From NCBI RefSeq assembly GCF_024055795.1, contig NZ_JAMXMY010000027.1, positions 62,001 to 126,000 on the forward strand: a DNA stretch of 64,000 nt. Direction: 5' to 3'. Each line of letters starts with the position of its first letter. The first letter of the stretch is position 1. The position numbers and the translations under genes were made by a program. The stretch is from Actinoallomurus purpureus. GTDB lineage: Bacteria > Actinomycetota > Actinomycetes > Streptosporangiales > Streptosporangiaceae. A model generated the notes under the pieces. That model was not told where the DNA came from. It searched no databases and was given only the letters and a program-made list of their open reading frames with translations. Shown in pieces: positions 12,188 to 32,490 of this stretch.

Positions 12188-12200
12188 CCTTGATCAGGTG

Positions 12201-12244
12201 GGTGCCCCCGGCAGGATTCGAACCTGCGGCACACGGTTTAGGAA
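12201..12244 (-). repeat. att repeat, A/B junction
   Basis: 44 bp identical to the tRNA 3' end at 32416-32459. It separates element A from element B. Confidence 0.92.
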
Positions 12245-16648: not shown

Positions 16649-16684
16649 GGCTTCAGCATGTCCCACTGGTACCGACTCCCGCCG

Positions 16685-17408: not shown

Positions 17409-17455
17409 AGACGCCGCGCGCCCAGCCACGACCGGGGAGGCTCGGTCGCGCGGTC

Positions 17456-17492: not shown

Positions 17493-17687
17493 AGAGCGGG
17501 GGCGCGGCGGTGCCGGAGGTGAGGGGCCGGCGACGTCGTGCCCCCGCGCCCTGATCTCCCCGGCGGGGCACGACCGGTAGCTCATGGCCATGACACCAAC
17601 CCGCCCCGCCGGGGCCATCACCAACGGTGCGGCCGGTCGCGAACCGCACCCTCTACTCTGTCATCGCAAGAAGCCGGAAGGAGCCAC

Positions 17688-18146: not shown

Positions 18147-18180
18147 GCCGCTGTCGCCATTCTCGCACCTATGGACGCAG

Positions 18181-19617
18181 CTACTGTCGACTGACAATGC
18201 GAGTTATACCGGCAACGACTGTTGTGGCCAATATCCAGCCTGCCGCGATCAGAAGATAGGCGAGCCATTGGTAGGGGCCATGAGGAGTGAACGCCTTTTC
18301 CTGGCCGAAGTCGATGATCGGTAGCAGAAGATCGAGTGTATAGACAGCGGAATTGAAGTCGGGACCCTTTACCGGTTCAACCGGGCTGGGATGGTGGAAT
18401 CCATAGACCACCGTCCCAAAGAGCATGAGAGCCAACAGCCAGGCCATGGCACGCGTCGGCCGGAAGCCATAACCCACGGTGGCGTCCTGCATGTAGCCCC
18501 AAACCTTGGCGTACCAGGACAGCGTTTTACGATGGCGACGTTGTTTGGCAAGCTGCACGGCACGGGCAGCGGCGTCGTCACCGATTCGCCGGTATGCGGC
18601 GGTGAGCTGTTCATACGCATGCGGCACGTAGTCATGCTCGCGTTCCAATAGTTCCAGCCGTCTACTGGCGGGCAGCGGCGGAATTATCGCGCCATAAGAA
18701 AGTCCGTTTAGCTTGACGCGGTCCGGCCATATCTCGGGAGCGACAGAAATAAGACTGAACTGGGAGCGCCGTAGGTTGACCTCACCGACGATTGGCATCG
18801 CCTCCCGTAGCCAGAGTTCTCCGACCGTGCAACTGCTGGCTCGAAACGCCACTCCACCCGGATTGGACAGTCGCGCATAGTCGAGGTCCAGTTTCCCGGG
18901 AATCTTGGAACCTCGTAGATTTACTCTGCCGTCGACTTGGATCGATTTTGCGACCAGGTTGGAGCCGACAGTGAGGTTTTCGGCCTTCAGAGCGGTGTGG
19001 CCCGGGTTACTCAGGCTTGCCTTCTCAAAGTTCACGGCCCCGCTAATCGTGGCGCCGACGAGTCGGACTTGTCCGTGGGTTACCAGACCTTCCGCCGAGA
19101 GGTCATCGCCGATGGTGGCATGGTTCAGTTGTAGGACCGCGTTCTGTCCTTGATCGCTACTGTGTTCGTCGCCGAGATTCGCCCTGTCGGCAAAGAGGGC
19201 TCCGGAAATCTTCGCCCCACCGAGCTTCACCGGACCGGGAATACGGCAGCCGGTGATTCGCAGCACGCCAGCGACACGAATGGTCGGGGCGTCAAGCTCC
19301 GGGAGATATGACCTGCTTAGATTAAGCTGGCGGACTTGCGCCCCATAAAAGGTCGGGGGGTATTCGAAACGACAAGCACGCAAACTGATTGGCTGGTCGA
19401 TGATTGCGTAGGCCAGGTTCAGTCGTCCGGAGATATGCGCACCCTCCAGCCGGAGTGCAGCTATTTTTCCATCCTCTGAAACATTGCCGAGCAACAGTGA
19501 CTGGATTACCTCGGCTCGCACCGCCCGCTCATCGGTATCACGAAACTTGACCCTCTCCCCGCGCGGGAACGCTCGCCATATTCGACGTTCGGCCGCTGTT
19601 AGATCTGTGATCTTCAT
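18181..19617 (-). CDS. Beta-helix-like membrane protein
   Basis: A 478-residue protein with a long run of degenerate pentapeptide-like repeats (LRLEGAHISGRLNLAYA, VKLGGAKISGALFADRA, VRLVGATISGAVNFEKA) predicted to form a right-handed beta-helix, then a helical, basic stretch and two hydrophobic segments at the C terminus (about 392-412 and 447-470). Homologues are sometimes annotated as membrane-associated oxidoreductase, but no cofactor motif is visible. It probably anchors a beta-helix at the cytoplasmic membrane. It converges on the GntR gene. Role on the element unknown. Confidence 0.75.
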   Translation of the reverse strand: MKITDLTAAERRIWRAFPRGERVKFRDTDERAVRAEVIQSLLLGNVSEDGKIAALRLEGAHISGRLNLAYAIIDQPISLRACRFEYPPTFYGAQVRQLNLSRSYLPELDAPTIRVAGVLRITGCRIPGPVKLGGAKISGALFADRANLGDEHSSDQGQNAVLQLNHATIGDDLSAEGLVTHGQVRLVGATISGAVNFEKASLSNPGHTALKAENLTVGSNLVAKSIQVDGRVNLRGSKIPGKLDLDYARLSNPGGVAFRASSCTVGELWLREAMPIVGEVNLRRSQFSLISVAPEIWPDRVKLNGLSYGAIIPPLPASRRLELLEREHDYVPHAYEQLTAAYRRIGDDAAARAVQLAKQRRHRKTLSWYAKVWGYMQDATVGYGFRPTRAMAWLLALMLFGTVVYGFHHPSPVEPVKGPDFNSAVYTLDLLLPIIDFGQEKAFTPHGPYQWLAYLLIAAGWILATTVVAGITRIVSRQ

Positions 19618-19767
19618 CGGCGGGACCCTCTCGCGTAACCGATCTTCATGTCAACGGCTGGCGGTGCCGTCGGCAGCCTTTCGCGGGCATTGGATCGTCG
19701 AGAGGCAGGTTCGTCCAGGTACTGAGCGACCGGAGCCCGGCTGAGCGTCTGGCAGCTCATGCCCTCC

Positions 19768-20898
19768 TCAACGTTCGTATTCGGCAAGTCGCTCTATCCG
19801 GCGTTTTTGACGGAGCGATCCAGTGCGATTGACCAGGAGGCGCGCGACGCGTAGATGTTCCTCAGCCGGTCCGCGCTCACCACGGACCAGGAGAGCGGCG
19901 GCGAGATCGATTCGGACGCCGGCCTCAGCGCGCGCATAGGTGCCGTCCACGCTGACAAGCCCTGCACTCAGTTCCTCGATCGCGTCAGCATCACCCAGCC
20001 GCGCGAGACAGTTCCCCCGCCAGCGGGCAAGGTGCGTCTCGTTAAGTACGAGGTAGGGCAGCGGGTCGTCCGGTGCTGCCGGTAGGAGGCCAGTCGCTTC
20101 CTCGAGTGCCTTTCGGACGGCGTCAGGGGCGGCATTCCTCATGGCGGCGGCCATCTCCGCTTGTGCGGCGGCGAGCCAGGTTCGCATTAGGGCCGGCACC
20201 TTACTCGCGGCTTGCTGACGGGCGTATCCGACCAGTTCAGCGGCCTGCTCCGCGTTCCCCAGGTCGAGGAGCACGTAAGCCTGCTCGGCGGTCGCGAAGG
20301 CTAGAAGGGAGGAATCTTCGGCCTCTCGCGCTGCGGACTTGGCGCGTTCGAAGTGTTCCCACGACTCTCGCGGTGTGCCAACGTCGAGCGCCTGCCACCC
20401 AGCCAGGGCGGCGGTGTCTGCGAGCACCTTGGCGAGCATGCCGCGTACGCCAGGGCGTACGGCGTGGCGGTTCAGTTCCTCGATGTGGGCGATGTGGGCG
20501 CGCATCTGGTCGCGGATGAGTTGCGCGCCCTGGCGTCCGTCCAGAAGCCGGATGCCGTCCGTCTGGGCCTGAAGCAGGTTGGCCACCTCGACGTCGACGG
20601 AAGCGGCCCGTGCCAGCTCCGTTGCGAGCTCGTCTGTCGACTCGTGATCGGTGACGGTCACCTTGGGCAGTTCGACGAAGCCGAGTTCGGCTGGCGAGCA
20701 GTCGTACACCTCGCAGAACAGCGGCTGGTAGAAGTCGCCGACCGGACCGTGGCCGTTCTCCCAGCGTGAGATCTGACGGCCGAGGCTCTTCGGCGGAGGG
20801 AGCGCCTCTTTGTGTCTCTTGGCCACCTCGCGAAGCCGCCTGTCGAGCTGGGCCTGAGTCCATCCGCGTTGCTCCCGCTGGGCGCGCAACGGGGTCAC
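19768..20898 (-). CDS. XRE/TPR transcriptional regulator
   Basis: A 376-residue regulator: helix-turn-helix at about 5-70 (WTQAQLDRRLREVAKRH and SLGRQISRWENGHG), then alanine-rich TPR-like helices. GTG at 20898 is chosen for AGGAG five bases upstream. It is divergent to the transfer operon, and a perfect palindrome (20973-20987) lies in its upstream region. It is a relative of the regulators at 1 and 15506 and probably controls entry into transfer together with the GntR protein. Confidence 0.85.
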   Translation of the reverse strand: MTPLRAQREQRGWTQAQLDRRLREVAKRHKEALPPPKSLGRQISRWENGHGPVGDFYQPLFCEVYDCSPAELGFVELPKVTVTDHESTDELATELARAASVDVEVANLLQAQTDGIRLLDGRQGAQLIRDQMRAHIAHIEELNRHAVRPGVRGMLAKVLADTAALAGWQALDVGTPRESWEHFERAKSAAREAEDSSLLAFATAEQAYVLLDLGNAEQAAELVGYARQQAASKVPALMRTWLAAAQAEMAAAMRNAAPDAVRKALEEATGLLPAAPDDPLPYLVLNETHLARWRGNCLARLGDADAIEELSAGLVSVDGTYARAEAGVRIDLAAALLVRGERGPAEEHLRVARLLVNRTGSLRQKRRIERLAEYER

Positions 20899-20972
20899 CA
20901 GCACTCCTAGCCGTACAGGTCGCACATGTTTACTGACCCGTCATTCTCCCGGATCTACGCGACCTGACAAGG

Positions 20973-20987
20973 GGATGACAGTCATCC
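20973..20987. promoter_or_regulatory. Palindrome upstream of XRE regulator
   Basis: GGATGAC-A-GTCATCC is a perfect 15-bp palindrome about 75 bp upstream of the XRE start, between it and the transfer promoter; partial repeats of the half-site (GTCATC) follow near 21001-21006. Confidence 0.5.
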
Positions 20988-21083
20988 ACTGTCGGCCGGT
21001 GTCATCTGTTGCCGGGTCCCCCGCAGCGGCGAACCTGGATCACGTCGGGCCGATGAGGCCAAGGCTCCACAAGCAGAAGGGAC

Positions 21084-21123
21084 TTGACAGGTGATCGCCG
21101 AGGCGCGTTATCTGTACATGTAC
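21084..21123 (+). promoter_or_regulatory. Transfer-operon promoter with overlapping palindrome
   Basis: TTGACA (21084-21089), an 18-bp spacer, and TTATCT (21108-21113) make an unusually consensus-like sigma-70 promoter. The perfect palindrome GTACATGTAC (21114-21123) follows the -10 box, where a bound repressor would block initiation. It drives the genes from 21158 onward. Confidence 0.65.
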
Positions 21124-21157
21124 CTCTTGTCTAGTAAACGGCGGAGGAGGTTCGCTG

Positions 21158-21328
21158 ATGTTCCCCCAGCCGAAGAAGTGGCCGCGCTACGTGGTCGGCG
21201 CGATCGTCGTGGTCTTCGTGTTCAAGAACCCCACCGCCGCCGCCCACATGGCCAACAACCTCGCCGGACTCATCTCCCAGGGCGCCGCTGCGCTGGGCAA
21301 GTTCGCTTCCGCCATCCACACCGGCTGA
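21158..21328 (+). CDS. Small single-pass membrane protein
   Basis: A 56-residue protein with a basic N terminus (MFPQPKKWPR), a hydrophobic segment at about 11-22 and a small-residue amphipathic helix. GGAGGAGG (21142-21149) precedes the ATG. It is the first gene after the regulated promoter. Small membrane proteins of this kind are frequent at the head of AICE transfer operons and may be spread (Spd) proteins; the assignment is by position. Confidence 0.7.
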   Translation: MFPQPKKWPRYVVGAIVVVFVFKNPTAAAHMANNLAGLISQGAAALGKFASAIHTG

Positions 21329-21334
21329 TCCGCT

Positions 21335-21383
21335 GCACAGCCACCAAGCACGGCATCGGATCTGCCGCCCCCAACCGATCACG
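21335..21383 (+). repeat. Leader repeat copy 1 (before WhiB)
   Basis: A ~48-bp sequence beginning GCACAGCCACCAAGCACGG and ending CCAACCGATCACG. It ends 24 bp before the WhiB start. Further copies: 22275, 26260, 28814. Confidence 0.8.
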
Positions 21384-21407
21384 ACCCCGATCAACCCGGA
21401 GGTTCAC

Positions 21408-21743
21408 ATGAACACCCACCCCAGCAAGCTCGCGCTGCCCGACCTTCGTGACGAATGCCTCGACGGCGCCGAGTGCCTGTACGACCCCGAGCTTCACGAC
21501 GGCCCTGACGATGGCGGAGTCATCGAGCATCCGCACGACCAGGCGGCCCGTGAGGACATCGCCAAGGACATCTGCGGCACGTGCCCGGTGCGGAACGCCT
21601 GCCTGGACTACGCGCTTCGTACCAAGCCCAACCGAGGCATCTGGGCCGGACTCACGGTGGATGAGCTGGCGACGCTCACCGACTCGCGCGCTGAGCACGA
21701 GCCGCCGGCGACCGACCGCGACGCCTACCGCAGCGTGGCCTGA
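21408..21743 (+). CDS. WhiB-family iron-sulfur regulator
   Basis: A 111-residue WhiB-like protein. Four cysteines for the [4Fe-4S] cluster are present: C23 (in AECLYDPEL), C56, C59 and C65 (ICGTCPVRNAC); C17 is an extra one. The GIWAGLT turn follows at about 77-83. WhiB proteins bind the sigma factor region 4 and regulate transcription in actinobacteria; element-borne copies are common on AICEs. The C terminus is acidic rather than strongly basic. It lies in the transfer operon with a leader repeat in front. Confidence 0.92.
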   Translation: MNTHPSKLALPDLRDECLDGAECLYDPELHDGPDDGGVIEHPHDQAAREDIAKDICGTCPVRNACLDYALRTKPNRGIWAGLTVDELATLTDSRAEHEPPATDRDAYRSVA

Positions 21744-21780
21744 CGCCCAGCACCTCACAACGGAAGGAGATCAACGCGCC

Positions 21781-22251
21781 ATGTCCCCCATCCCCGGTGA
21801 TCTCGCTGCTCTGCTCCGAGTCGGCGCGCGCGGCTACCACCCCGAAGAGGCGGCGATCAAGCTGTTGATCGACCACGGCACCTGGCTACGTCGCCAGGAC
21901 TTCACCCGCGCGTGTGTGGTCTTCGACGACGCGCAGTCGGCCGCCTTCATCGATTGGCGACTTGCCATCAAAGCGTTGAACGCTGGTGATCTGCCGTGTT
22001 CCGCGAGCGAGGCGAACATTCTCCGCCTGGCCACTGCCCTCAACGGCGGCCCCGGCGTCTCCCTTCGAGACGCACTCATCGGCCTCGACTCCCGCAACAT
22101 CCGCCTCGTTGCCCAAGCCGTCCTTCACGCGAACGGCACCACCAACGGCACTGTCACCGTTCCCGAGCCTCGTCGGTTTCCGCCCGGCGTCCGCGTCGTG
22201 GATGCCGCCGGCAACGTCCTGCAAGACGGCCAGGACGGCGAAGAGCCGTGA
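21781..22251 (+). CDS. Hypothetical AICE protein
   Basis: A 156-residue protein of unknown function. The N-terminal two thirds are helical with a conserved-looking LLIDHGTWLRRQDF segment; the C terminus is glycine- and aspartate-rich. GGAAGGAG precedes the ATG. It lies between WhiB and the spread protein, in the transfer operon. I do not recognise a domain. Confidence 0.7.
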   Translation: MSPIPGDLAALLRVGARGYHPEEAAIKLLIDHGTWLRRQDFTRACVVFDDAQSAAFIDWRLAIKALNAGDLPCSASEANILRLATALNGGPGVSLRDALIGLDSRNIRLVAQAVLHANGTTNGTVTVPEPRRFPPGVRVVDAAGNVLQDGQDGEEP

Positions 22252-22274
22252 TCCGCTCATCAAGCATCCACGGC

Positions 22275-22322
22275 GCACAGCCACCAAGCACGGCGCCGGA
22301 CCACGACCCCCGACCGATCACG
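22275..22322 (+). repeat. Leader repeat copy 2 (before DUF2637 gene)
   Basis: Same repeat as at 21335; it ends 19 bp before the start at 22342. Confidence 0.8.
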
Positions 22323-22341
22323 CAACCGAAGGAACAGCATC

Positions 22342-23490
22342 ATGGCTGACCCCTACGCCACCCCGTCTCCTCCGCGTCTGACCTCCGTTCCGCCTCCGGT
22401 CCGACCGGCCGAACGGAAGCGGGTTCTGACCGAGCACGAGCAGACCGCCGTGGTGGTCGCCGGCGCGATGGTCGCCGCTCTGGGCCTGCTGGGGTTCGTG
22501 AACAGCTTCGCCCGCGTTGCTGCTGCGGCCCGCGCGTCGTTCGGCTGGTTCGCCTTCACGGTCCCGATCGGCATCGATCTTGGGATTGCGGTGTTCTCTG
22601 CGCTCGACATCGTGCTTGCCCGCCTGGACATGCGGGTTCGGTGGCTGCGGCTGATCCCGTGGTCGCTGACCGGCGCGACCGCCTATCTCAACGTCGCCAC
22701 TGAGACAACCGCGTTCGGCCGGATCGCTCACGCGGTGCTGCCCGGCCTGTGGGTCATCGCTGTAGAGGTCGGCGCCCACGTGGTCAAGGTCCGCGCCGGA
22801 ATCGAGGCGGGTACCCGGATGGACACCGTCCGCGCATCCCGGTGGCTGCTGTCGCCGTGGCCGACCGCCAAACTGTGGCGCCGCATGGTGCTGTGGGAGG
22901 AGCGCTCTTACCCCACCGCGCTTGGCCGCGAGCGTGACCGACTTCTCGCGCTGACCGACCTACAGGACACCTACGGCGCCGTCGCGTGGCGGTGGAAGGC
23001 TCCCCGCCGCGTGCGCGCCCTCTACCGTCTCGGTGAACTCGCCCCCGTCGCCGACCGGCCCGAACTCGACACACTGACGCCTCTGCTGCCCGTGCCCGTG
23101 GCGGACACCCGCCCGGCGCTCCAGGCGGCAAGCGGCGGCGCAGTGGCGGACACCAGCGCTGGTGAGCAGGCGGACATGCCACCGACACCGGCCCGCCACA
23201 GCGCGACCCGTACGGCGGACACCCGCCCCAGCACGAAGGCCGCCATCGGCAAGGCCCGGATGGCGGACAGGCAGGCGGACAAGGCGCGTGCCCTCTTGAG
23301 TGCCGACCCCGAGATGACCGGCGCAGAGTTGGGCCGACGGCTCAAGGTCTCTGAACGCACCGGGCTGCGGCTTCGGACCCGGATTCTCGCCGAACTCGAC
23401 GAGCCCACCGCCGACACCACGACAGCCCCTGACACGACCACGACCGCCCGCAGTGAGCCCGCCACGGTGGAAGGAGCCGACGAGCGGTGA
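22342..23490 (+). CDS. DUF2637 spread (SpdB-like) membrane protein
   Basis: A 382-residue protein with four membrane segments (about 34-56, 66-93, 102-118 and 127-152), matching DUF2637 proteins encoded next to the Tra ATPase on Streptomyces plasmids and AICEs, where Spd proteins support intramycelial spread. The C-terminal third is a linker rich in alanine and ADT repeats followed by a helix-turn-helix (GAELGRRLKVSERTGLRLRT, about 320-345), so it may also touch DNA. Its stop overlaps the Tra start (GTGA). A leader repeat lies just upstream. Confidence 0.85.
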   Translation: MADPYATPSPPRLTSVPPPVRPAERKRVLTEHEQTAVVVAGAMVAALGLLGFVNSFARVAAAARASFGWFAFTVPIGIDLGIAVFSALDIVLARLDMRVRWLRLIPWSLTGATAYLNVATETTAFGRIAHAVLPGLWVIAVEVGAHVVKVRAGIEAGTRMDTVRASRWLLSPWPTAKLWRRMVLWEERSYPTALGRERDRLLALTDLQDTYGAVAWRWKAPRRVRALYRLGELAPVADRPELDTLTPLLPVPVADTRPALQAASGGAVADTSAGEQADMPPTPARHSATRTADTRPSTKAAIGKARMADRQADKARALLSADPEMTGAELGRRLKVSERTGLRLRTRILAELDEPTADTTTAPDTTTTARSEPATVEGADER

Positions 23491-25715
23491 GCACCCCTGA
23501 CCAGTACGCAGACGTCATCGACTTCCCCGCCCCCGACACCTACGACGACACCGGCACGACACCGGCCGCGCTGCCGTCCGGTACCGGTGGCGGGACCGTC
23601 CCGCCGAATCCCCCGGCGGGTCCGGCAGGCGACGAGTTCGACGGCCAGGACGCGGCCGATGCCGAGTCGGTGGTCATCACCGGCACCGTCGTCGGCGGTC
23701 CAGTGGATCCGCCTGACGAGCCGCGCCGGTTCGGCCCCGGGGCGAGCAAGCATGAGCGCCGGCCGGTGGTCCCGCCGTGGCTGAACTCGCGTTCCACGAT
23801 CCGCGCGTCGCTGCTGTGGGTGGTGGATGAGGCGAAGTACCACGCTCTGTTTCACGCGGTACGGGTTCCGAAGTACGCCGGTAAGGCGCTCGTGTGGGCG
23901 CCGGTCGGCGCTGGTGTCACCACGGCCCGGCTGATCCGGTGGGCATCGGCCGAAGAGGGTAACTGGCACCTGCGCCAGGCCGCCGCCTCTCGCGGTGACG
24001 CTGACACGTGGCTCAAGCTCGACGCCCGTCGGCAACGGCAAGCGTCGTGGCGGTGGTTGCTGGTCGTCCCGCTGCTCGTGGTCATGCTCGCCGCTGTGCT
24101 GGTGCTGGTGTTCGGGTCGGTGCTGCTGGCGTACCGGGTGCTCGCGGTGCTGGTAGCCGTGCCGGTGCTGGCCCGACTCGGCCGGCCCGCCGATAAGCCG
24201 ATCACTGACCGCGTGTCCAACGCCCCCGGCTACCGCAAGCTCACGGCCGAACTGGTGCGTCGCGCCCTGCTCAGCGTGCAGTTGGCGGGGATCAACTCCG
24301 CGGTCGCCAAGGACCCGAACGCGATCTCCTTCCCGGTGGAGATCCACCGGGAAGGCCCCGGCCACCTGGCCATCGTGGACCTGCCGTACGGGGTCGAGGC
24401 CGCCGACGTGATCACGCGGCGCGGCAAGCTCGCGTCTGGGCTGCGGTTGCCGCTGGACCAGGTCTGGCCCGAACCGGCCCCCGGCCACACCGGCCGGTTG
24501 GCGCTGTGGGTCGGGTTCGAACCGGCGTCGCAGATGCGGCAACCTGCGTGGCCGCTGATCAAGGGCGCCAAGGTGGACGTGTTCAAGCCGTTCCCGTTCG
24601 CCACCACGCCCCGGATGAACGTGGTCAACGTCTCGCTGATGTACCGCAACTGGCTGTTCGGCGGTCAGCCCGGTTCAGGCAAGACGTTCGCGCTGCGGCT
24701 GCTCGCGCTCGCCGCCGCTTTGGACCCGCGCGTTGAGCTGCGGATCTACGAGATGAAGGGTGTCGGGGACTTCAAGCCGCTGGCCCCGGTGTGTGCCGAG
24801 TACGGCAACGGTTTCGACGACGACACCCTTGCCGCCTGCGCCAAGCTGATCGACTGGCTGTATGAGGAGTGCCAGCGCCGTTCCAAGCGCATCGACCACT
24901 ACGCAGAGCTGGGCAAGGCTCCGGAGAACAAGGTCACCCCCGAGTTGGCGTCGCTCAAGGGGTCTGGGCTTCACCCGCTCGTGGTGTGCCTTGATGAGTT
25001 GCAGGAACTCATGCTCTCCCCGCACGGCAAGCGTGCCGGCGAGATCCTGGAGAAGGTCATCAAGCTGGGCCGTGCCCTGGGCGTGATCCTCATCATCGGG
25101 ACACAGATCCCGGACAAAGACAGCCTGCCAACCGGCATCACCCGCAACGTCAACACCCGGTTCTGCCTGTCGGTGGCCGACCAGACCGCCAACGACATGA
25201 TTCTCGGGACGAGCCAGTACAAGCTTGGGCACCGGGCCACGGTGTTCAAGCCCGGCCCGCCGTCCGAGGGCGGGGAAGCCGGCTGGGGCATCCTGCGCGG
25301 CATCGGCGAGACCGGCGCCCGCTGCTCCTTCTACGTCGATTCCGACCAGGCCGCCCGCATCATCACCCACGCCGTAGCGCTGCGCACCGCCGCCGGCACC
25401 ATGCCCGAGGAAGGCACCCAGACCCGCGACACCGGTCCCGCGTACGACGTACTCACCGACGTCGCCGCCGTCTGGCCGGCCGGTGAGGACGCCGCATGGA
25501 ACGAAACCCTGCTGGAAGCCCTGACCGAACTACGGCGCGACGTCTACGAGGGTTGGACCGCCGCGCAACTGACCTCCGCCCTGTCCACCCACGGCGTGAG
25601 CGTGCGGCAGATCGGCCGACGCATCGACGGCAAGACCGTCAACCGTCGCGGCCCGAGCCGCGCCGACATCATGACCGCGATCACCGAGCGTAAGCGGAAG
25701 CGGGCCGCGGATTAG
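23487..25715 (+). CDS. FtsK/SpoIIIE-like conjugal transfer ATPase
   Basis: A 742-residue DNA translocase of the TraB/TraSA type that moves double-stranded AICE DNA between hyphae. N-terminal membrane segments lie at about 187-230, the Walker A motif GGQPGSGKT at about 391, and the Walker B motif LVVCLDELQEL at about 499. The C terminus (about 685-735) contains a winged-helix-like region (WTAAQLTSALSTHGVSVRQI) that in the family recognises clt repeats. The GTG start is coupled to the spread gene. The GCTAGC-rich region directly downstream is the obvious candidate clt. Confidence 0.93.
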   Translation: MSTPDQYADVIDFPAPDTYDDTGTTPAALPSGTGGGTVPPNPPAGPAGDEFDGQDAADAESVVITGTVVGGPVDPPDEPRRFGPGASKHERRPVVPPWLNSRSTIRASLLWVVDEAKYHALFHAVRVPKYAGKALVWAPVGAGVTTARLIRWASAEEGNWHLRQAAASRGDADTWLKLDARRQRQASWRWLLVVPLLVVMLAAVLVLVFGSVLLAYRVLAVLVAVPVLARLGRPADKPITDRVSNAPGYRKLTAELVRRALLSVQLAGINSAVAKDPNAISFPVEIHREGPGHLAIVDLPYGVEAADVITRRGKLASGLRLPLDQVWPEPAPGHTGRLALWVGFEPASQMRQPAWPLIKGAKVDVFKPFPFATTPRMNVVNVSLMYRNWLFGGQPGSGKTFALRLLALAAALDPRVELRIYEMKGVGDFKPLAPVCAEYGNGFDDDTLAACAKLIDWLYEECQRRSKRIDHYAELGKAPENKVTPELASLKGSGLHPLVVCLDELQELMLSPHGKRAGEILEKVIKLGRALGVILIIGTQIPDKDSLPTGITRNVNTRFCLSVADQTANDMILGTSQYKLGHRATVFKPGPPSEGGEAGWGILRGIGETGARCSFYVDSDQAARIITHAVALRTAAGTMPEEGTQTRDTGPAYDVLTDVAAVWPAGEDAAWNETLLEALTELRRDVYEGWTAAQLTSALSTHGVSVRQIGRRIDGKTVNRRGPSRADIMTAITERKRKRAAD

Positions 25716-25728
25716 GTCGCGAACCGGT

Positions 25729-25883
25729 GCTAGCGCTAGCGGCCCGCCCTGCTAGCGCTAGCACCCCCGCTAGCACCCAAGATCCACGATCACCAGCACG
25801 TTAGCCGCTAGCAGCCTGACCAGCACACATCCCGGAAATCGGCTCTGAGCGCCGTTTCGGACCCCCGTCACCGGGCCGCTAGC
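25729..25883. repeat. GCTAGC array, candidate clt or origin
   Basis: Seven copies of the palindrome GCTAGC in 155 bp: two fused 12-mers (25729-25740, 25751-25762) and singles at 25769, 25807 and 25878, in a non-coding gap after the Tra gene. TraB-type translocases act on clusters of short repeats near their gene. Replication iterons are an alternative. Confidence 0.65.
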
Positions 25884-25945
25884 CCTACTTCACCGTTCCC
25901 TCCAACCGTGACTGTCCGTTACATCCGAGCGTTGGGAGAACCACC

Positions 25946-26233
25946 GTGCAAACCCTGCTACTCGCCTCCGGCGACCACGCCAGCAACGACACCGGAAGCC
26001 TGATCCTGCTCGTACTGTTCGCGCTGGTCCTCTACGGCGCCGCATGTGCGATCTGGCCGTTTCGGTCCTGTCGTACCTGCGGCGGATCCGGGCGCTTCCG
26101 CTCCCCGTCCGGCCGCGCCTGGCGGTACTGCCGCCGCTGCAACGGCACCGGCGCCAAGCTCCGTCTCGGCCGCCGCATCCTCACCTACCTCGCCAACACC
26201 CGCGACCGTGGCACGCGAGGCCATCGTGACTAG
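25946..26233 (+). CDS. Membrane-anchored zinc-finger protein
   Basis: A 95-residue protein with one hydrophobic segment at about 18-37 and two C-x-x-C-x-G-x-G motifs (CRTCGGSG and CRRCNGTG) as in the DnaJ zinc domain, followed by a very basic tail. The tail and finger would face the cytoplasm. GTG at 25946. It lies between the candidate clt and the replication genes and is similar in motif to the genes at 3004 and 3161 in element Z. Confidence 0.7.
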   Translation: MQTLLLASGDHASNDTGSLILLVLFALVLYGAACAIWPFRSCRTCGGSGRFRSPSGRAWRYCRRCNGTGAKLRLGRRILTYLANTRDRGTRGHRD

Positions 26234-26259
26234 CCCACGAGACGCGAAAGCGGCCCGGC

Positions 26260-26307
26260 GCACAGCCACCAAGCACGACGCCGGACCGCCGCCCCCAACC
26301 GATCACG
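26260..26307 (+). repeat. Leader repeat copy 3
   Basis: Same repeat as at 21335; it ends 23 bp before the start at 26331. Confidence 0.8.
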
Positions 26308-26330
26308 TAACCGAAGGAGGCCCCTCCATC

Positions 26331-26603
26331 ATGACCCACGCCATCCAGCCCGACCAGCAGAACGCCCGCACGCGCGCGGTTTGGCTGCTTCCCGAAGACG
26401 GCGTCATCGACCCCATCGCGATCGACCTGGCCACCCGTGGCGTACGGCCCGTCGCGCTCACACCCGCTGAGCGGCGCATCGCCGCCGCCTCCATCCTCGC
26501 CACCGGCGGCACACCGAACACGATCGCCAAGCGGCTACACATGGCGCATTCGACCGCCCGCACCCTGGCCGAGCAGATCACCGCCGACGGCATCGCCGCC
26601 TAG
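26331..26603 (+). CDS. Small helix-turn-helix protein
   Basis: A 90-residue protein. The C-terminal half (LTPAERRIAAASILATGGTP then TIAKRLHMAHSTARTLAEQI) is a helix-turn-helix similar to those of sigma or LuxR-type factors. A leader repeat and GAAGGAGG precede the ATG. A strong hairpin follows before the replication gene. It is probably a regulator of replication or transfer; the target is unknown. Confidence 0.7.
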   Translation: MTHAIQPDQQNARTRAVWLLPEDGVIDPIAIDLATRGVRPVALTPAERRIAAASILATGGTPNTIAKRLHMAHSTARTLAEQITADGIAA

Positions 26604-26615
26604 AACGCCGCTCCC

Positions 26616-26640
26616 GTCCCGCCGCCTCGCGCGGCGGGAC
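26616..26640 (+). terminator. Hairpin before the replication gene
   Basis: Perfect 10-bp stem GTCCCGCCGC/GCGGCGGGAC with a 5-base loop, 28 bp before the GTG at 26669; it may attenuate read-through into that gene. Confidence 0.6.
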
Positions 26641-26668
26641 ACCCAACCCCTCGAAGGGAAACACCCCA

Positions 26669-28651
26669 GTGACCAAGCCCACCGCGCTCCGCATCATCGA
26701 CGGCGAACAGCCCGACGCGGAGCTCGGCCGAGCGCTCCCGCACAACATCACCGCCGAACAGGTCGTGCTCGGCGCAATGATGCTCTCACCAGCCGCGCTC
26801 GCAGAAGTCCGCGAACTCCTCGACGGTAACGAGTTCTACCGACCCGCCCACGCCCGAATCTGGGAGACGATCACCACTCTCGCGGACCGTGGCGCCCCGT
26901 CTGATCCGCTGGCCGTCGGCGCCGAACTCGGCCCCGATCTGACCAAGACCGGAGGCGCGCCCTACCTCCACACCCTCGTCGCCCAGGTCCCCACCGCCGC
27001 GAACGCCGGCTACTACGCCCACATGATCCGTGACCTCGCCTACGCCCGGACGGTCGTCGAGACCGGTACCCGGCTCATCCAACTCGGCCAAGAGGCCACC
27101 GGCGAGAGCGCGAGCAACCTCCGTGGCGCCGTCACCACCGAAGTCGCCGAACTGTCCTCCGCCGATGTACGCGGATGGCCGAACCCCGTCCCGCTGACCA
27201 CGACGGCCACCGAACTCCCCGGCTTCCCGTTGTGGACGCTACCGAGTTGGATCGGCGAGTACGCCGCGAGCCTGGCCGAGGTCACCCAGACCCCGCCCGA
27301 CCTGGCAGGCTGCCTTGCCCTGGCCGTACTCGCCGTCGCGGCCGGCGGGAAAGTGTGGGTGCAAGCCCCCGCATGGCGCGAGCCGACGAACCTTTTCACC
27401 GTCGTCGTGCTACCGCCCGGCAACCGCAAATCCGAGGTCTTCCGGGCGATATGCGCCCCCATCGTGGAGACGGAAAAGTCTCTGATCACCGAGGCTGAGC
27501 CCGTGATCGCCGGAGCGGTCATCGCCCGACGAGTCGCCGAAGCCGAAGCCGACAGGACGGCGAAAGCCGCCGAGAACGCCACCGGTCTCGACTCCACACA
27601 GAAGACACTCGCGATCACCGAGGCCGCCGAGGCGAAACTCGCCCTCGACGCCGCCACCGTTCCGCCAAAGCCGCGTCTGTTCTCCGATGACGCCACCGTT
27701 GAAGGGCTCACCTCGCTCCTGTGCGAGCAAGGCGGACGGATGGCCGTCCTGTCTCCCGAGGGCGAGATCTTCTCCATCGCCGCCGGCCGCTACTCCGGAG
27801 CCCCCAACTTCGCCGTCCTGAAGAAAGGCCACGCCGGAGAAGAGATGCGCGTGGACCGGATGGGACGCGACTCCGAACACATCGAAGCCGCCACCATCAC
27901 CCTGGGAATCTGCACACAACCCGGAGTCCTGGCCGAACTCGGCGCCACCCCGCAATTCCGCGATCAAGGGCTACTCGGCCGCCTGCTGTACGCGGTCCCG
28001 CACTCCCTACTCGGACACCGCAAACACAACCCAGACCCCATGCCCACCGACCAAGAAACCACCTACCAGACACGCGTCAAAGCGCTCGTGCTGTCCCTGG
28101 CCAAACTGCCCCAGCCCGCTACCCTCACCTTCACCCCCGACGCCCAGAACGCCATCACTCGGCTTCTCGCCGAAACCGAACCCCGGTTCCGCGCAGACGG
28201 CGACCTGGCGCACATGACCGACTGGGGCGGCAAACTCGTCGGCGCCGTCGTCCGCATCGCCGGCCTTCTCCACCTCGCCAAGCACCTACGCGACGGCTGG
28301 AACCAGCCGATCACCGCCGACACGTTCGCCGACGCCCGCGACATCGGCGAATACTTCACCGCCCACGCCAAAGCCGCCTACGACGCCATCGGCGCCGACC
28401 CCGCCACCGCCGACGCCCGCGCCATCCTCACCTGGACACGCAACACCGGCACGGCCCGATTCGCCGCCCGCGACGTCCAACCCCCGCTACGCGGACGGTT
28501 CAAGAAGGTCACCGACCTAGACCCCGCCCTACGCGTCCTCGAAACCCACGGCTGGATCCGCCGCCTACCGCCACCCCCGCGCACCGGACGTGGACGCCCT
28601 TCCGCCCCGATGTACGAGGTATACCCCTCCGCGCTGGATACGAGCCGATGA
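26669..28651 (+). CDS. DnaB-N / DUF3987 replication protein
   Basis: A 660-residue protein. Residues about 20-140 match the N-terminal domain of DnaB helicase (LPHNITAEQVVLGAMMLSPA and GGAPYLHTLVAQVPTAANA). The rest matches DUF3987, a helicase-like ATPase domain, with a degenerate P-loop PPGNRKSEV at about 250 and a C-terminal winged region. Element B has no RepSA or primase-polymerase gene, so this is the best candidate for its replication function. GTG at 26669 has AAGGGAA upstream. The DnaB-N to DUF3987 fusion suggests it loads or replaces the replicative helicase; this is inference. Confidence 0.82.
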   Translation: MTKPTALRIIDGEQPDAELGRALPHNITAEQVVLGAMMLSPAALAEVRELLDGNEFYRPAHARIWETITTLADRGAPSDPLAVGAELGPDLTKTGGAPYLHTLVAQVPTAANAGYYAHMIRDLAYARTVVETGTRLIQLGQEATGESASNLRGAVTTEVAELSSADVRGWPNPVPLTTTATELPGFPLWTLPSWIGEYAASLAEVTQTPPDLAGCLALAVLAVAAGGKVWVQAPAWREPTNLFTVVVLPPGNRKSEVFRAICAPIVETEKSLITEAEPVIAGAVIARRVAEAEADRTAKAAENATGLDSTQKTLAITEAAEAKLALDAATVPPKPRLFSDDATVEGLTSLLCEQGGRMAVLSPEGEIFSIAAGRYSGAPNFAVLKKGHAGEEMRVDRMGRDSEHIEAATITLGICTQPGVLAELGATPQFRDQGLLGRLLYAVPHSLLGHRKHNPDPMPTDQETTYQTRVKALVLSLAKLPQPATLTFTPDAQNAITRLLAETEPRFRADGDLAHMTDWGGKLVGAVVRIAGLLHLAKHLRDGWNQPITADTFADARDIGEYFTAHAKAAYDAIGADPATADARAILTWTRNTGTARFAARDVQPPLRGRFKKVTDLDPALRVLETHGWIRRLPPPPRTGRGRPSAPMYEVYPSALDTSR

Positions 28652-28806
28652 CCGCCACAGAGCGTCATCGTCACCTCGCCGCCGGACTGCTCCCCGGCCC
28701 TGAAGCACGTAAGCGAAAGACAGCAAAAACAATTCTGCTGATTTCCGCTTACGCGCTTACCCCCGCACGCCCGCCACCCTCTCGACCCACCAGGCACACA
28801 CCGTGA
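28648..28806 (+). CDS. Hypothetical small protein
   Basis: A possible 52-residue basic protein that overlaps the previous stop (ATGA). No domain recognised. The A-rich stretch (AAAACAATTCTG) inside it is atypical for the element. Coupling is the main support. Confidence 0.45.
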   Translation: MTATERHRHLAAGLLPGPEARKRKTAKTILLISAYALTPARPPPSRPTRHTP

Positions 28807-28813
28807 CCGGCGA

Positions 28814-28860
28814 ACAGCCACCAAGCACGCCGCCGGCCCACCTCACCCCGACCGATCACA
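28814..28860 (+). repeat. Leader repeat copy 4 (before xis)
   Basis: Same repeat as at 21335, slightly more diverged; it ends 16 bp before the xis start. Confidence 0.75.
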
Positions 28861-28876
28861 CCACAGGAGCAAACCC

Positions 28877-29074
28877 GTGAATACGCGGTCCCGCAGTCAG
28901 CAGTGGCTGACCGTCCAAGACATACTCGACGATCTCGAAATCCCTCGCCGGACGTGGCAGCGCTGGCGAGAGCTCGGCCGTACTCCGCGATGCAAGCGCC
29001 TACCCAATGGCGAACTGCGCATCAGCCGCGCCAACTACGACAGGTGGCTGGACTCGCTAGAGGAGGTCGCGTGA
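28877..29074 (+). CDS. xis: Excisionase-type helix-turn-helix protein
   Basis: A 65-residue MerR-like winged helix protein (WLTVQDILDDLEIPRRTWQR, wing LPNGELRIS), homologous to the xis of element A. GTG at 28877. Its stop overlaps the int start (GTGA). It should direct excision of element B together with Int. A leader repeat sits in front, so xis-int may be controlled with the transfer genes. Confidence 0.87.
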   Translation: MNTRSRSQQWLTVQDILDDLEIPRRTWQRWRELGRTPRCKRLPNGELRISRANYDRWLDSLEEVA

Positions 29075-30459
29075 ACCTCAGCTACGACATTCGTTTCCGG
29101 AAGACGCGGGTTCACCCACGAGCGGGGCGACGGCCTCACAACGTACGGTGGGTCGTCGGTGGCCGGCCGCACGATTCCTACTTCGCAACTAACGCTCTAG
29201 CCGAAAGCTTTAAATCTGAGCTGATCCAGGCTGCAAGAAGAGGAGAGGCATTCGATACTGAAAGCGGACTACCACTCTCAAAGCTCCGCGAGCAGGAGCA
29301 GGAGGCCACCAACGCAACGTGGTATCAGCATGCAACCGAGTACGTCGACTACAAGTGGACGCGGGTAGCAGCAACCGCCCGCGTCTCCATTGCAGAAACC
29401 CTCGTCACCATCACGTGCTCTCTGCTACCAAAATCGGGAACCGGGCGTCCAGATGACAAAGTTCTTCGCAGCGCGCTATTTCGCTGGGCGTTCAACAAGC
29501 GTGACCGTGAAACCGAGCGTCCGCCGGACATCGCCAAGGCGCTCAAGTGGGCAGAGGAAGAGTCACTTCCGCTCACCACGCTCGCCGATCTAAAGACAGT
29601 GCGCAACGTCCTCGACGCGTGCGCGCTACGCCTCGATGGTAAGCAGGCCGCGGCCAACTATCTCGCCCGACGCCGCCAAGTCTTCTACAACGTACTAAAG
29701 TACGCCGTCAGCCAGGAACGGTTGACCTCCAACCCCCTCGACGATCCGAAGCTCAACTGGGAGCGCCCCAGCGACATGGAGGTAGATCACGAGATAGACC
29801 CTCGAAGCGTCGGCAGCACGGAACAAACCACCGAGATGTTGGCGGCAGTTAGCTACATCGGACGTCACCAAGGGCCGCGATTCCTCGCGTTTTTCGGCTG
29901 CCTGTTCTACGCCATGATGCGACCCGAAGAGGCCATAGGGCTCCGCCGCGAGCACTGCGTACTACCCAACGAAGGATGGGGGCGCCTGACGTTGGCCAAG
30001 GCCATGCCTGCGGCTGGCCGCGCATGGACCGACAGCGGCGACGTGCACGACAATCGCGGGCTCAAGCACCGGTCCCGTAAGTCCACCCGCCTCGTGCCAA
30101 TTCCGCCCGAACTCGTGCGTCTCCTGCGTGACCACATTGAGCGATACGGCGTCGGACCAGACGGGCACCTATTCCGCAGCGTAAACAACAATCCGATTCA
30201 TCCCTCGACGTACGCGCGCGTCTGGAAGCGCGCCCGTGTACTGGGCTTGCCCCCCGACGCCCAACCCACGCCGCTGCTCGCAACCCCATACGACCTCCGC
30301 CACGCGGGCATCTCCGTACGGCTCTATGCTGGCGTACCGCCAAAGCAGGTAGCCGAGTGGGCTGGCCACAGCGTGGAGGTTCTCCAGCGGGTCTACTCGA
30401 AAGTTCTCGACGGATTCGACGACAGATGGTTCAAGCAAATCGATGAGGTGCTTCAGTGA
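29071..30459 (+). CDS. int: Tyrosine site-specific integrase
   Basis: A 462-residue tyrosine recombinase. Catalytic motifs: MMRPEEAIGL (first Arg), YDLRHAGISVRL (second Arg), AGHSV and VLQRVYSK (Tyr nucleophile). It is related throughout to the element A integrase, and both target the tRNA-Arg(CCT) gene. Unlike in element A it is not next to att: two cargo genes on the opposite strand lie between it and the tRNA. The codon pattern is slightly less GC-rich than in the transfer genes. Confidence 0.95.
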   Translation: MNLSYDIRFRKTRVHPRAGRRPHNVRWVVGGRPHDSYFATNALAESFKSELIQAARRGEAFDTESGLPLSKLREQEQEATNATWYQHATEYVDYKWTRVAATARVSIAETLVTITCSLLPKSGTGRPDDKVLRSALFRWAFNKRDRETERPPDIAKALKWAEEESLPLTTLADLKTVRNVLDACALRLDGKQAAANYLARRRQVFYNVLKYAVSQERLTSNPLDDPKLNWERPSDMEVDHEIDPRSVGSTEQTTEMLAAVSYIGRHQGPRFLAFFGCLFYAMMRPEEAIGLRREHCVLPNEGWGRLTLAKAMPAAGRAWTDSGDVHDNRGLKHRSRKSTRLVPIPPELVRLLRDHIERYGVGPDGHLFRSVNNNPIHPSTYARVWKRARVLGLPPDAQPTPLLATPYDLRHAGISVRLYAGVPPKQVAEWAGHSVEVLQRVYSKVLDGFDDRWFKQIDEVLQ

Positions 30460-30473: not shown

Positions 30474-31334
30474 TCAAATAGGCAATTCTGCCTGAACGTC
30501 CGGATGTCGAGCCAAGGCAAAATCTATAGCTAGTCCTAGTTCGGTCCGAGATCGAGCAGATCGCCCGCCTTGATTTAGGAGGATACGATTCCCTGGCGGC
30601 GTGCCTTCACCAAATTCCAAGACGAATACAGGACGGCCGATCTTTAGAGCCCCCTGCCCTGCGGCAAGCGTCCCGCCACGCTCGCCGGCCTCTATGACAA
30701 CCAGAGCACGCCCAAGCCCGAAAATCACCTTATTTCGCGCCATAGCGTTGTACGCGCCCCACGGCTGAGAGGGCGGGAATTGCGAGACGACAAGTGCCCG
30801 GCGCCGATCAAAGTCGTCCGCAAAAACTTTCTTAATCCGGAAGTGATCGAAACCTTCGGCCAGGACAATAACGGTGCATCCTCCTGTTTGCAAAGCAGCA
30901 AGATGCGTCTCGGTATCCACACCCTTCGCATATCCAGAGATAACGACTAGCCCGCGTGCGCTAACCTCTTCACCACAGGCACGTGCAGCCTTCAGGCCGA
31001 GCTCCGTGGCGGCACGCGATCCGCACATTCCAATTCCCGGCTCTTCAAAAAGTTGCGGATCTCCTTGATAGAACAAAATAGGAGCAGCGGGCCGACCGCG
31101 ATCAATGAGAGATTTTGGGAAGTCTTCATCCCCGAATATGGTCACCGATATATCTTGCTGCGCAAGAGAGAAGATTTTCTCTCTGATCTTATCTTTAACA
31201 ACGTCATCGAGTAGATCCCATTGCCGCTTGAGACCTTGTCGCCCCTCGACTCTCAGCGAATTAGTGATCTTTCCTGGAGTTCGCAAGGTTTCGAACGCCG
31301 CGAGAGCGAGCGCCAATGACTGAAGATCGGCCAC
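30474..31334 (-). CDS. DprA/SMF-like Rossmann protein
   Basis: A 286-residue protein with the DprA (SMF) Rossmann core: GMCGSRAATELGLKAAR, VISGYAKGVDTETHLAAL, VIVLAEGFDHFR, then ARNKVIFGLGRALVVIEAG and GRPVFVLEFG. Chromosomal DprA loads RecA on incoming single-stranded DNA; DprA belongs to the wider SLOG superfamily, which also includes nucleotide-binding and nucleotide-processing proteins in conflict systems. This copy is separated by 15 bp from a ComFC-like phosphoribosyltransferase gene and is element cargo, so it is unlikely to be the housekeeping DprA. The N-terminal ~85 residues are divergent. Confidence 0.85.
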   Translation of the reverse strand: MADLQSLALALAAFETLRTPGKITNSLRVEGRQGLKRQWDLLDDVVKDKIREKIFSLAQQDISVTIFGDEDFPKSLIDRGRPAAPILFYQGDPQLFEEPGIGMCGSRAATELGLKAARACGEEVSARGLVVISGYAKGVDTETHLAALQTGGCTVIVLAEGFDHFRIKKVFADDFDRRRALVVSQFPPSQPWGAYNAMARNKVIFGLGRALVVIEAGERGGTLAAGQGALKIGRPVFVLEFGEGTPPGNRILLNQGGRSARSRTELGLAIDFALARHPDVQAELPI

Positions 31335-31349
31335 AACCCCTCCCTCATA

Positions 31350-32180
31350 TTAATTGCGTAGCGTCCTGACGGCCACAAGTCCGAAGACACGCTGCGCTCC
31401 TGCGCGTCGAGCCGCAAGGGCAACTGAGCTCATCGTCTCTCCGCTTCTGTAGACGTCATCAATAACTATCACATCGCCAGATAGGGTCTGCGGCATTTTA
31501 AATGCATCCCGCAGACTTCCCGAAGCGCCTTCCTTACTCGCCGGCCGAGCTCCATTTACGGAGATTGTCTCCACTACGAGTTTTTTCGTTTCCCTCCCGA
31601 CGGCTCTCGCGAAACCCTCTCCAACACTGTTACCGTCAGCCTTATGTCCAGGGACCGTAACGATAATTGGAGCATCTCGGTATAGTGGATGAGATTGGAC
31701 TACTGCAACTACTCGCCGCAGTAGCTCACCGGCCGCTTCGCGCCGCTTGGCATCATTGGATGTGTAATACTTCGCGCGATACACGAGCTCACCCACGTCC
31801 GTGTTCGGCCACTGCTGGGGATCAAGGTCCGGATGCGGCTTTTTATACCAATCGAGTGCTATCGCGCAGTCAAGCGAAGATCGGCGAGTAAGAGAAAATA
31901 CCTCCTCTAGCAATCTAACCAGATCCAGGACATCTTGCGGGAGACCTTCGTCAAAGCGGTAGCAATGCGAGTAGTCGGCAACAAATTGATCGTTGGGTTC
32001 GACCGCCACACACGCCGATCCCCCTACCATCTCGATCTGCGCCCCCGCCTCAGTCGGCCCGAAGATGTACAGCCATCTGGTGCCGTCGTCGCCTTCGGCG
32101 AGCTTCGCCACAAGGAACCTGCCCACGCGATTCGCGCGGCTGTCAGCAACGAACGGGGAGAGCCTTCTGAAGTTGACCAC
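31350..32180 (-). CDS. ComFC-like phosphoribosyltransferase
   Basis: A 276-residue protein whose C terminus holds the PRPP-binding signature VIVIDDVYRSGETMSSVAL (about 234-252) and the strand AQRVFGLVAVRT, as in ComFC and other type I PRTases. The middle has IIVTVPGHKADGNS, comparable to the substrate loop region. The zinc-finger N terminus of classical ComFC is not visible; about 130 unfamiliar residues replace it. In competent bacteria ComFC works with ComFA and DprA. Here it forms an operon with a DprA-like gene on a mobile element. Function unknown; a defence or DNA-entry role is inferred. Confidence 0.8.
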   Translation of the reverse strand: MVNFRRLSPFVADSRANRVGRFLVAKLAEGDDGTRWLYIFGPTEAGAQIEMVGGSACVAVEPNDQFVADYSHCYRFDEGLPQDVLDLVRLLEEVFSLTRRSSLDCAIALDWYKKPHPDLDPQQWPNTDVGELVYRAKYYTSNDAKRREAAGELLRRVVAVVQSHPLYRDAPIIVTVPGHKADGNSVGEGFARAVGRETKKLVVETISVNGARPASKEGASGSLRDAFKMPQTLSGDVIVIDDVYRSGETMSSVALAARRAGAQRVFGLVAVRTLRN

Positions 32181-32403: not shown

Positions 32404-32415
32404 CGTGATCAAGTG

Positions 32416-32459
32416 GGTGCCCCCGGCAGGATTCGAACCTGCGGCACACGGTTTAGGAA
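32416..32459 (-). repeat. att repeat in the intact tRNA gene
   Basis: The 44-bp segment of the intact tRNA-Arg gene that is duplicated at 12201 and, with one mismatch, at 3811. Confidence 0.92.
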
Positions 32460-32490
32460 ACCGTTGCTCTATCCCCTGAGCTACGAGGGC
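32418..32490 (-). tRNA. tRNA-Arg (anticodon CCT)
   Basis: A complete 73-nt cloverleaf reads on the minus strand: acceptor GCCCTCG paired with CGGGGGC (one G-U), D arm GCTC/GAGC, anticodon stem ACGGT/ACCGT with loop TTCCTAA (anticodon CCT), T arm GCAGG-TTCGAAT-CCTGC, discriminator A. CCA is not encoded. It decodes AGG. Its 3' half is the integration target of elements A and B, which restore the gene on insertion. Confidence 0.97.

What the first reader, a model, noticed from the sequence alone, without database searches (positions are those of the whole stretch)
30474..32180. DprA-like and ComFC-like phosphoribosyltransferase pair as AICE cargo
Seen: two co-directional genes, 15 bp apart, inserted between the element B integrase and the tRNA, and less GC-rich than the transfer genes. 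One has the full DprA/SMF Rossmann core, the other the PRPP loop of ComFC. Known: DprA and ComFC cooperate in natural transformation, and DprA belongs to the SLOG superfamily found in nucleotide-based conflict systems. Inferred: on a conjugative element in a presumably non-competent actinomycete, the pair may act on incoming DNA, against phage or rival elements, or in protecting the element during entry. The N termini of both proteins (about 85 and 130 residues) are unfamiliar.
Basis: partly seen in the sequence, partly recalled or inferred. Interest (0 to 1): 0.72.

Follow-up and report, generated by a model that had tools for sequence, protein, structure and literature searches.

The report
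Mobile-element toxin–antitoxin pair, DprA/PRTase type
Two adjacent genes at the end of an integrated conjugative-type element in a bacterial chromosome look like a distinct and seemingly rare form of a known toxin–antitoxin and phage-defence pair (a phosphoribosyltransferase toxin with a DprA-like antitoxin), rather than DNA-uptake genes.

Summary
31350-32180(-) encodes a 276-aa PRTase-like protein (T) and 30474-31334(-) a 286-aa DprA-like protein (A), 15 bp apart, AT-rich, between a tyrosine integrase and tRNA-Arg; exact 47-bp repeats (12198-12244, 32413-32459) put them inside the element. They do not qualify as competence genes: A misses the dprA cut-off that the genome's own dprA passes; T misses the comF cut-off. 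Best reading: a toxin–antitoxin/anti-phage module of the PsyrTA(RqlHI)/ShosTA kind. A scores best as PsyrA and T's PRTase domain is nearest RqlH/PsyrT, but T has no RecQ helicase, and its first ~125 residues match nothing tested. Full-length T was found elsewhere only in two genomes of one other genus, each with A directly behind it and beside tRNA-type att repeats; in one the nearby integrase is a C-terminal remnant while the pair stays open. The two sister pairs are under purifying selection. A new variant of a known kind. Toxicity, neutralisation and defence are inferred, not tested; an unusual Arg in T's PRPP loop speaks against certainty.

The parts
31350..32180 (-). T: 276-aa PRTase-like protein, predicted toxin/effector, first gene of the pair; PRTase domain about residues 123-273, residues 1 to about 122 unassigned
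30474..31334 (-). A: 286-aa DprA-like (SLOG/Rossmann) protein, predicted antitoxin/sensor; best PADLOC model PsyrA
31335..31349 (-). 15-bp intergenic gap with a purine-rich, ribosome-binding-like stretch for A
32413..32459 (.). att repeat at the tRNA side (47 bp identical to 12198-12244), overlapping the 3' part of tRNA-Arg
12198..12244 (.). att repeat at the other end of element B (also the border with element A)
32416..32490 (-). tRNA-Arg (CCT), integration target
28903..30459 (+). element B tyrosine integrase (ORF as listed; the true start may lie further in)
   Evidence: Phage_integrase E 3.8e-5, 24 bits, cut-off 27.1; 45% identical to the integrase of the G539 element
28877..29074 (+). 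small HTH_17 (excisionase-type) ORF of element B
   Evidence: 23.6 bits, cut-off 27
26669..28651 (+). DnaB-N plus DUF3987 protein, presumed replication protein of element B
23487..25715 (+). FtsK/SpoIIIE-domain protein (25.6 bits, cut-off 24), presumed TraB-type translocase of element B

Best explanation
T and A form a two-gene toxin–antitoxin module of the PRTase/DprA kind (PsyrTA/RqlHI and ShosTA), carried as cargo at the attP-proximal end of an AICE-type element. Inferred mechanism: T uses PRPP through its PRTase domain and harms nucleotide pools or DNA; A, a DprA-like Rossmann protein expected to bind single-stranded DNA or repair intermediates, keeps T in check. Phage infection or loss of the element upsets A, T is released and the cell stops growing or dies, which blocks phage spread and punishes loss of the element. 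T is best described as a PsyrT-type PRTase without the RecQ helicase, with an unrelated ~125-residue N-terminal part that probably does the targeting or regulation that the helicase does in RqlH. Shown here: gene pair, location, family similarity, conservation as a pair, purifying selection in the sister pairs. Inferred: toxicity, neutralisation, trigger, defence, stabilisation.
For: A: PADLOC PsyrA 155.5 and ShosA 132.8 bits; G539 relative 170.1 and 133.4; the genome's own housekeeping DprA the other way round, 85.1 and 165.4. T: PsyrT E 2.4e-8 over 534-684 of 689 profile positions, the PRTase part; profile-profile match to four RqlH/PsyrT proteins over residues 146-268 at 92%, against 69% over 37 columns for four ShosT-like proteins and 90% over 45 columns for ComF. 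In a 25-row tree A groups with its two relatives and a Nostoc PsyrA-like protein (99/96; very long branch). Pairing: A next to T in 3 of 3 genomes with full-length T. Genes matching A are mostly paired: 10 of 11 family genomes. Of 22 plasmid/phage loci picked by hand, 11 have an open PRTase neighbour (weakest profile support in L136 and L143), L133 a RecQ-family helicase, L128 a fragment, nine none; six of the nine lie beside topA- or smg-type genes and a seventh beside tldD. Selection: G539 against G533 dN/dS about 0.19 (T) and 0.12 (A). In G533 the pair is open beside a 124-residue integrase remnant. Literature, passages only: a DprA+PRTase pair of a P2-like phage protects against T7 and lambda (PMC9122126); the RqlH PRTase domain is genotoxic without the DprA-like RqlI (PMC4670107); ShosT described as a PRTase that disturbs purine metabolism, ShosA as DNA-binding (review PMC12593503; the original, Pu 2025, is not held).
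Against: The PRPP loop reads DDVYRSG (relatives DDVCRSG), with Arg where the Nostoc RecQ-PRTase has Asp (DDIVDS) and most other rows Thr; in E. coli RqlH the Asp that should lie at this place (D663; correspondence inferred, that protein was not aligned) is largely needed for toxicity, and its PRTase domain alone was not toxic. So the chemistry may differ or be lost. The ShosA model also scores the housekeeping DprA at 165 bits and the ShosT model finds PRTases in 97 of 100 genomes, so single-model hits mean little. In a 16-row PRTase tree T did not group with RqlH, and in the DprA tree paired and housekeeping rows part only at a weak branch (46/29). Structures could not be modelled (mean pLDDT 50.8 for T, 34.5 for A, single sequence); the fold search gave nothing at E <= 0.001. 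No sigma-70-like promoter was found. Solved canonical DprA matches A better (3uqz, E 2.4e-26) than solved ShosA (9vzo, E 1.8e-10).
Confidence: 0.72

Rival explanations
1. The pair handles the element's own DNA during entry or replication (a DprA-like loader with a nucleotide enzyme), with no toxin function.
For: DprA proteins bring incoming ssDNA to RecA (established; also stated in the passage of PMC9122126). Location beside integrase and att site.
Against: Comparable pairs sit on phages and plasmids in both gene orders, unlike a transfer gene of AICEs; element A of the same window has no DprA gene (the whole genome has two PF02481 matches, C38 and the pair); the pair stays open in G533 where the integrase is a remnant.
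Confidence: 0.1
2. A is an RqlI-like control protein that also acts on the host's orphan RecQ-PRTase (RqlH), and T modulates that partnership; the element thereby takes hold of a host genome-integrity enzyme.
For: The genome has a full-length RqlH-like gene (711 bits to PsyrT) with no DprA-like ORF in the 12 kb read around it; 43 of 60 genomes searched, own included, have a match that spans most of the PsyrT model (my count from its rows); A is PsyrA-like.
Against: No direct evidence of cross-talk; A has its own partner T, and this form was found in 3 genomes only.
Confidence: 0.07
3. A competence-type DprA/ComFC pair picked up by the element.
For: Shared domain superfamilies.
Against: A below the dprA equivalog cut-off (131.3 of 191.15) and T far below comF (12.1 of 233.55); no cysteine finger visible in T; other copies exist in the genome.
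Confidence: 0.04
4. A passenger module that is no longer active in this lineage.
For: Unusual Arg in the PRPP loop; low GC.
Against: Both frames open; purifying selection in the sister pairs; 96 of 139 identical T residues and 120 of 178 identical A residues use different codons between window and G539.
Confidence: 0.07

Closest known systems
PsyrTA / RqlHI (RecQ-PRTase toxin with DprA-like antitoxin)
   Same: Antitoxin scores best here; PRTase domain nearest to the RqlH one; gene order T then A as in the Nostoc plasmid locus L134.
   Different: No RecQ helicase: T is 276 aa and matches only the last part of PsyrT; an unrelated N-terminal part; Arg in the PRPP loop.
ShosTA and the P2-phage DprA+PRTase pair
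   Same: Stand-alone PRTase next to a DprA-like protein on mobile DNA.
   Different: The 8 ShosT-like pairs and the two Gordonia phage pairs have A before T; the Gordonia phage toxins have a CxxC...CxxC N terminus; A here scores better as PsyrA.
Canonical DprA and ComFC
   Same: Domain superfamilies; DprA Rossmann domain present.
   Different: Below both curated cut-offs. A has 27 residues behind the last position matched by the dprA model (259 of 286), the own chromosomal DprA 94 (306 of 400).
AICE
   Same: tRNA integration, 47-bp att repeats, integrase, excisionase-type, FtsK-domain and replication-type genes.
   Different: Not examined beyond the cargo and ten ORFs; transfer not tested.

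Membership tests
PsyrTA/RqlHI | DprA-family partner encoded next to the toxin | tested here: met
PsyrTA/RqlHI | Toxin carries a RecQ-type helicase in front of the PRTase domain | tested here: not met
   T is 276 aa; PsyrT profile matched at 534-684 of 689 only; N-terminal 128 residues show no match to RqlH (0.2%)
PsyrTA/RqlHI | C-terminal PRTase domain with PRPP-loop acidic residues | tested here: inconclusive
   Domain found and DD conserved, but Arg where the RqlH-type loop has Asp
PsyrTA/RqlHI | Toxicity of T neutralised by A | not testable with these tools
   needs an experiment
ShosTA | Stand-alone PRTase next to a DprA-like gene | tested here: met
ShosTA | Specific similarity to ShosT and ShosA | tested here: inconclusive
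   ShosT E 5.4e-5, ShosA 132.8 bits, but the housekeeping DprA scores 165.4 on the same ShosA model and ShosT matches in 97 of 100 genomes; solved ShosA 9vzo E 1.8e-10, a solved DprA E 2.4e-26
ShosTA | Anti-phage protection | not testable with these tools
   needs phage challenge
Canonical DprA | NCBIfam dprA equivalog cut-off (191.15 bits) | tested here: not met
   A 131.3; own chromosomal dprA 205.9
ComFC | NCBIfam comF cut-off (233.55 bits) and cysteine zinc finger (the finger is recalled knowledge) | tested here: not met
   12.1 bits; cysteines only at 57, 73 and 105 of T, while the own ComF-like protein has a CxxC...CxxC stretch
AICE | att repeats at a tRNA with integrase, FtsK-like translocase and replication gene between them | tested here: met
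   integrase and excisionase hits lie just under the Pfam cut-offs
AICE | Conjugative transfer | not testable with these tools
   needs a mating assay

The most novel reading that the evidence does not exclude
An AICE carries a helicase-less PsyrTA in which a new ~125-residue domain replaces the RecQ helicase as sensor or targeting part of the PRTase toxin, and its PsyrA-type antitoxin also engages the host's orphan RqlH helicase, tying maintenance of the element to a host genome-integrity enzyme.
Probability: 0.1. Interest if true: 0.62.

Novelty: new variant of a known kind. Interest (0 to 1): 0.38.

Why it matters
PRTase/DprA systems exist with a helicase (RqlH, PsyrT) and without (ShosT). 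For RqlH the PRTase domain is needed but alone not enough for toxicity (PMC4670107, passages); what the rest adds is, as far as I know, open. A natural module with a PsyrT-like PRTase, a PsyrA-like partner and an unrelated small N-terminal part would let that be tested with small proteins. It also gives a concrete case of such a pair as AICE cargo: the held survey of actinobacterial defence (PMC10482375, one passage) calls ShosTA often plasmid-encoded and has no occurrence of the word AICE. The N-terminal part of T is the one piece without any counterpart in the searches made.

Tried and rejected
Scans of genome contigs with T and with A and of viral contigs with the T alignment confirmed no relative; tblastn of T against plasmids and phages found none, nor did that of the G539 T against plasmids. 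The ShosT family search was not specific and was dropped as evidence. A phylum search with T (103 of 396 genomes with a match at E <= 0.001) gave full-length coverage only for the window itself; the other matches cover parts of the protein, nearly all in the PRTase half. Partial matches reaching into the N-terminal half in G023, G605 and G477 were followed and not upheld: G605 gave none on re-search, G477 only residues 171-194, and the G023 match covers 115-180 in a doubtful ORF. Single-sequence structure models were too poor to use, and the PDB fold search on the T model gave only noise. ComFC membership: rejected on the cut-off. The idea that the N-terminal part of T is a worn-down RecQ end: no support. 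The trees rest on few, divergent rows with long branches; I use them as hints only. A neighbour of the M. branderi DprA was first left out as no PRTase and then recognised as one; it is counted among the 11.

Full report
What is there. They are AT-rich for the region: GC 0.564 and 0.546, against 0.649 for 12198-30459 and 0.674 for the window. A meets the element's integrase ORF (28903-30459, +) tail to tail.

The element. ARAGORN finds one tRNA, Arg(CCT) at 32416-32490. Its 3' part is repeated exactly over 47 bp at 12198-12244, and 33 bp of it at 3822-3854. That makes two elements stacked in one tRNA gene, A (about 3.8-12.2 kb) and B (about 12.2-32.46 kb); the pair lies inside B. Among ten B ORFs given to Pfam are an integrase (24 bits, cut-off 27.1), an HTH_17 excisionase-type ORF (23.6, cut-off 27), an FtsK/SpoIIIE domain (25.6, cut-off 24) and a DnaB-N plus DUF3987 protein. 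This fits an AICE; transfer is untested.

What A is. A has the DprA/SMF domain (Pfam 147 bits) but misses the NCBIfam dprA equivalog cut-off (131.3 of 191.15), which the genome's own 400-aa chromosomal DprA passes (205.9). PADLOC puts A at PsyrA 155.5 and ShosA 132.8 bits. As controls, the housekeeping DprA scores PsyrA 85.1 and ShosA 165.4, a Gordonia phage DprA paired with a PRTase 120.6 and 212.8, and the G842 one 124.9 and 213.3. So a ShosA hit alone proves little, but the PsyrA preference sets A and its G539 relative (170.1 and 133.4) apart in this small set. In a 25-row tree A, G539 and G533 group with a Nostoc PsyrA-like protein (99/96), which has a very long branch; paired and housekeeping rows part only at a weak branch (46/29). 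The N terminus of A aligns with that of the Nostoc protein. Against this, a solved canonical DprA matches A better than solved ShosA does.

What T is. General models see T poorly: Pribosyltran E 0.024, comF 12.1 bits. PADLOC gives PsyrT E 2.4e-8 over residues 123-273, positions 534-684 of 689, and ShosT E 5.4e-5. Profile-profile comparison of three T sequences gives 92% with four RqlH/PsyrT proteins over residues 146-268, 90% with three ComF-like proteins over 45 columns and 69% with four ShosT-like proteins over 37 columns. The first 128 residues give at most 0.2% with any of these and no Pfam hit. The PRPP loop reads DDVYRSG in the window and DDVCRSG in the two relatives; the aligned Nostoc RecQ-PRTase has DDIVDS and most other rows DD..T. 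[quoted passage not shown] E. coli RqlH itself was not aligned here). A 16-row PRTase tree did not place T with RqlH. I therefore call it PsyrTA-like without the helicase, not a PsyrTA.

Relatives. Full-length T occurs in the window genome and in two genomes of one other genus of the family: 3 of 345 genomes of the order, 2 of 54 of that genus. Samples of 396 genomes of the phylum and 394 of the class added no full-length match; the samples overlap and in these calls only the best candidates of a first look were scored, so absence is not proven. In both relatives A follows T directly, T 51% and A 62% identical to the window. In G539 the pair starts about 440 bp from an att repeat of tRNA-Tyr type that closes a neighbouring element with its own integrase, 45% identical to the B integrase; in G533 it lies between such a repeat and tRNA-Tyr itself, with a 124-residue integrase remnant beside it. 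Between G539 and G533 dN/dS is about 0.19 for T and 0.12 for A, from 16 and 15 differences.

How common is the pairing. With the A alignment, 11 of 250 family genomes have a match at E <= 1e-27. Own and G539 have the T type; 8 of the other 9 have a ShosT-like PRTase ORF directly behind A, one (G675) has none. From 70 listed plasmid and phage hits (of 233 and 36 records with a match) I fetched 22, chosen by hand with a bias to actinobacteria and phages plus some housekeeping ones: 11 of 22 have an open PRTase neighbour (L126, L127, L129, L130, L132, L134, L136, L137, L142, L143, L146; L136 and L143 with the weakest profile support), L133 a RecQ-family helicase by annotation, L128 only a fragment, and nine none. 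Nine of the 11 have A before T; T comes first in the Nostoc plasmid (L134) and SopEPhi (L137), as in the window.

Host genes. The genome has its own dprA (C38), a ComF-like gene (C22) and a full-length RqlH-like gene (C8, 733 aa, 711 bits to PsyrT) with no DprA-like ORF in the 12 kb read. rqlH without rqlI in Gram-positives is reported in PMC4670107 (abstract passage).

Mechanism. Known kin: a DprA+PRTase pair of a P2-like phage protects against T7 and lambda (PMC9122126, passage); RqlH is restrained by RqlI; a review describes ShosT as a PRTase and pyrophosphatase that disturbs purine metabolism, with DNA duplications, filamentation and death, ShosA as DNA-binding, and a T7 protein as trigger (PMC12593503, passage; the original is not held). 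By analogy T is the effector and A the DNA-sensing antitoxin; the N-terminal part of T would stand in for the helicase. This is inference; the Arg in the loop is the main reason for doubt.

Literature limits. Nine searches of the held library were made; papers were seen as listings or passages only. PMC10482375 calls ShosTA often plasmid-encoded in actinobacteria, and PMC10023795 lists it in actinobacterial prophages. In these listings and passages I saw no PRTase/DprA pair on an AICE and no helicase-less PsyrT, but the library is partial.

Verdict.

Noticed in passing
3822-12244: A second element (A) is stacked in the same tRNA-Arg, with its own integrase at 10586-11995, 43% identical to that of element B; its outer att repeat is 33 bp.
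   Followed up: partly
12561-14611: At the other end of element B, a low-GC stretch encodes a 434-aa PIN_8-domain protein (217 bits) and a 180-aa ORF without Pfam hit; no PADLOC match for the PIN protein. Possible second cargo module.
   Followed up: partly
L160 3995-6196 (G000:C8): The host chromosome has a full-length RecQ-PRTase (RqlH-like) gene with no DprA-like ORF in the 12 kb read; 43 of 60 genomes searched have a match spanning most of the PsyrT model.
   Followed up: partly
L063 9077-12454 (G533): About 3.3 kb between an att repeat and tRNA-Tyr keep the T/A pair open next to a 124-residue integrase remnant.
   Followed up: yes
L142 and L132: Gordonia phages Bosnia and Vasanti carry an HTH gene, a DprA-like gene and a PRTase in a row; in Bosnia the PRTase lies directly beside the tyrosine integrase.
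   Followed up: partly
L130 930-2639: In a Streptomyces avidinii plasmid the gene upstream of the dprA/comF-like pair also has a PRPP-loop-like motif (VIFDDFTTEG) and a weak ComF profile match (E 3e-4): perhaps a three-gene form.
   Followed up: no
L160 6740-11412: ORFs near the host rqlH look by eye like TnpB-type transposon proteins; not searched.
   Followed up: no
window 18181-19617: 478-aa ORF in element B with a pentapeptide-repeat hit just under the Pfam cut-off (25.4 of 27 bits).
   Followed up: no
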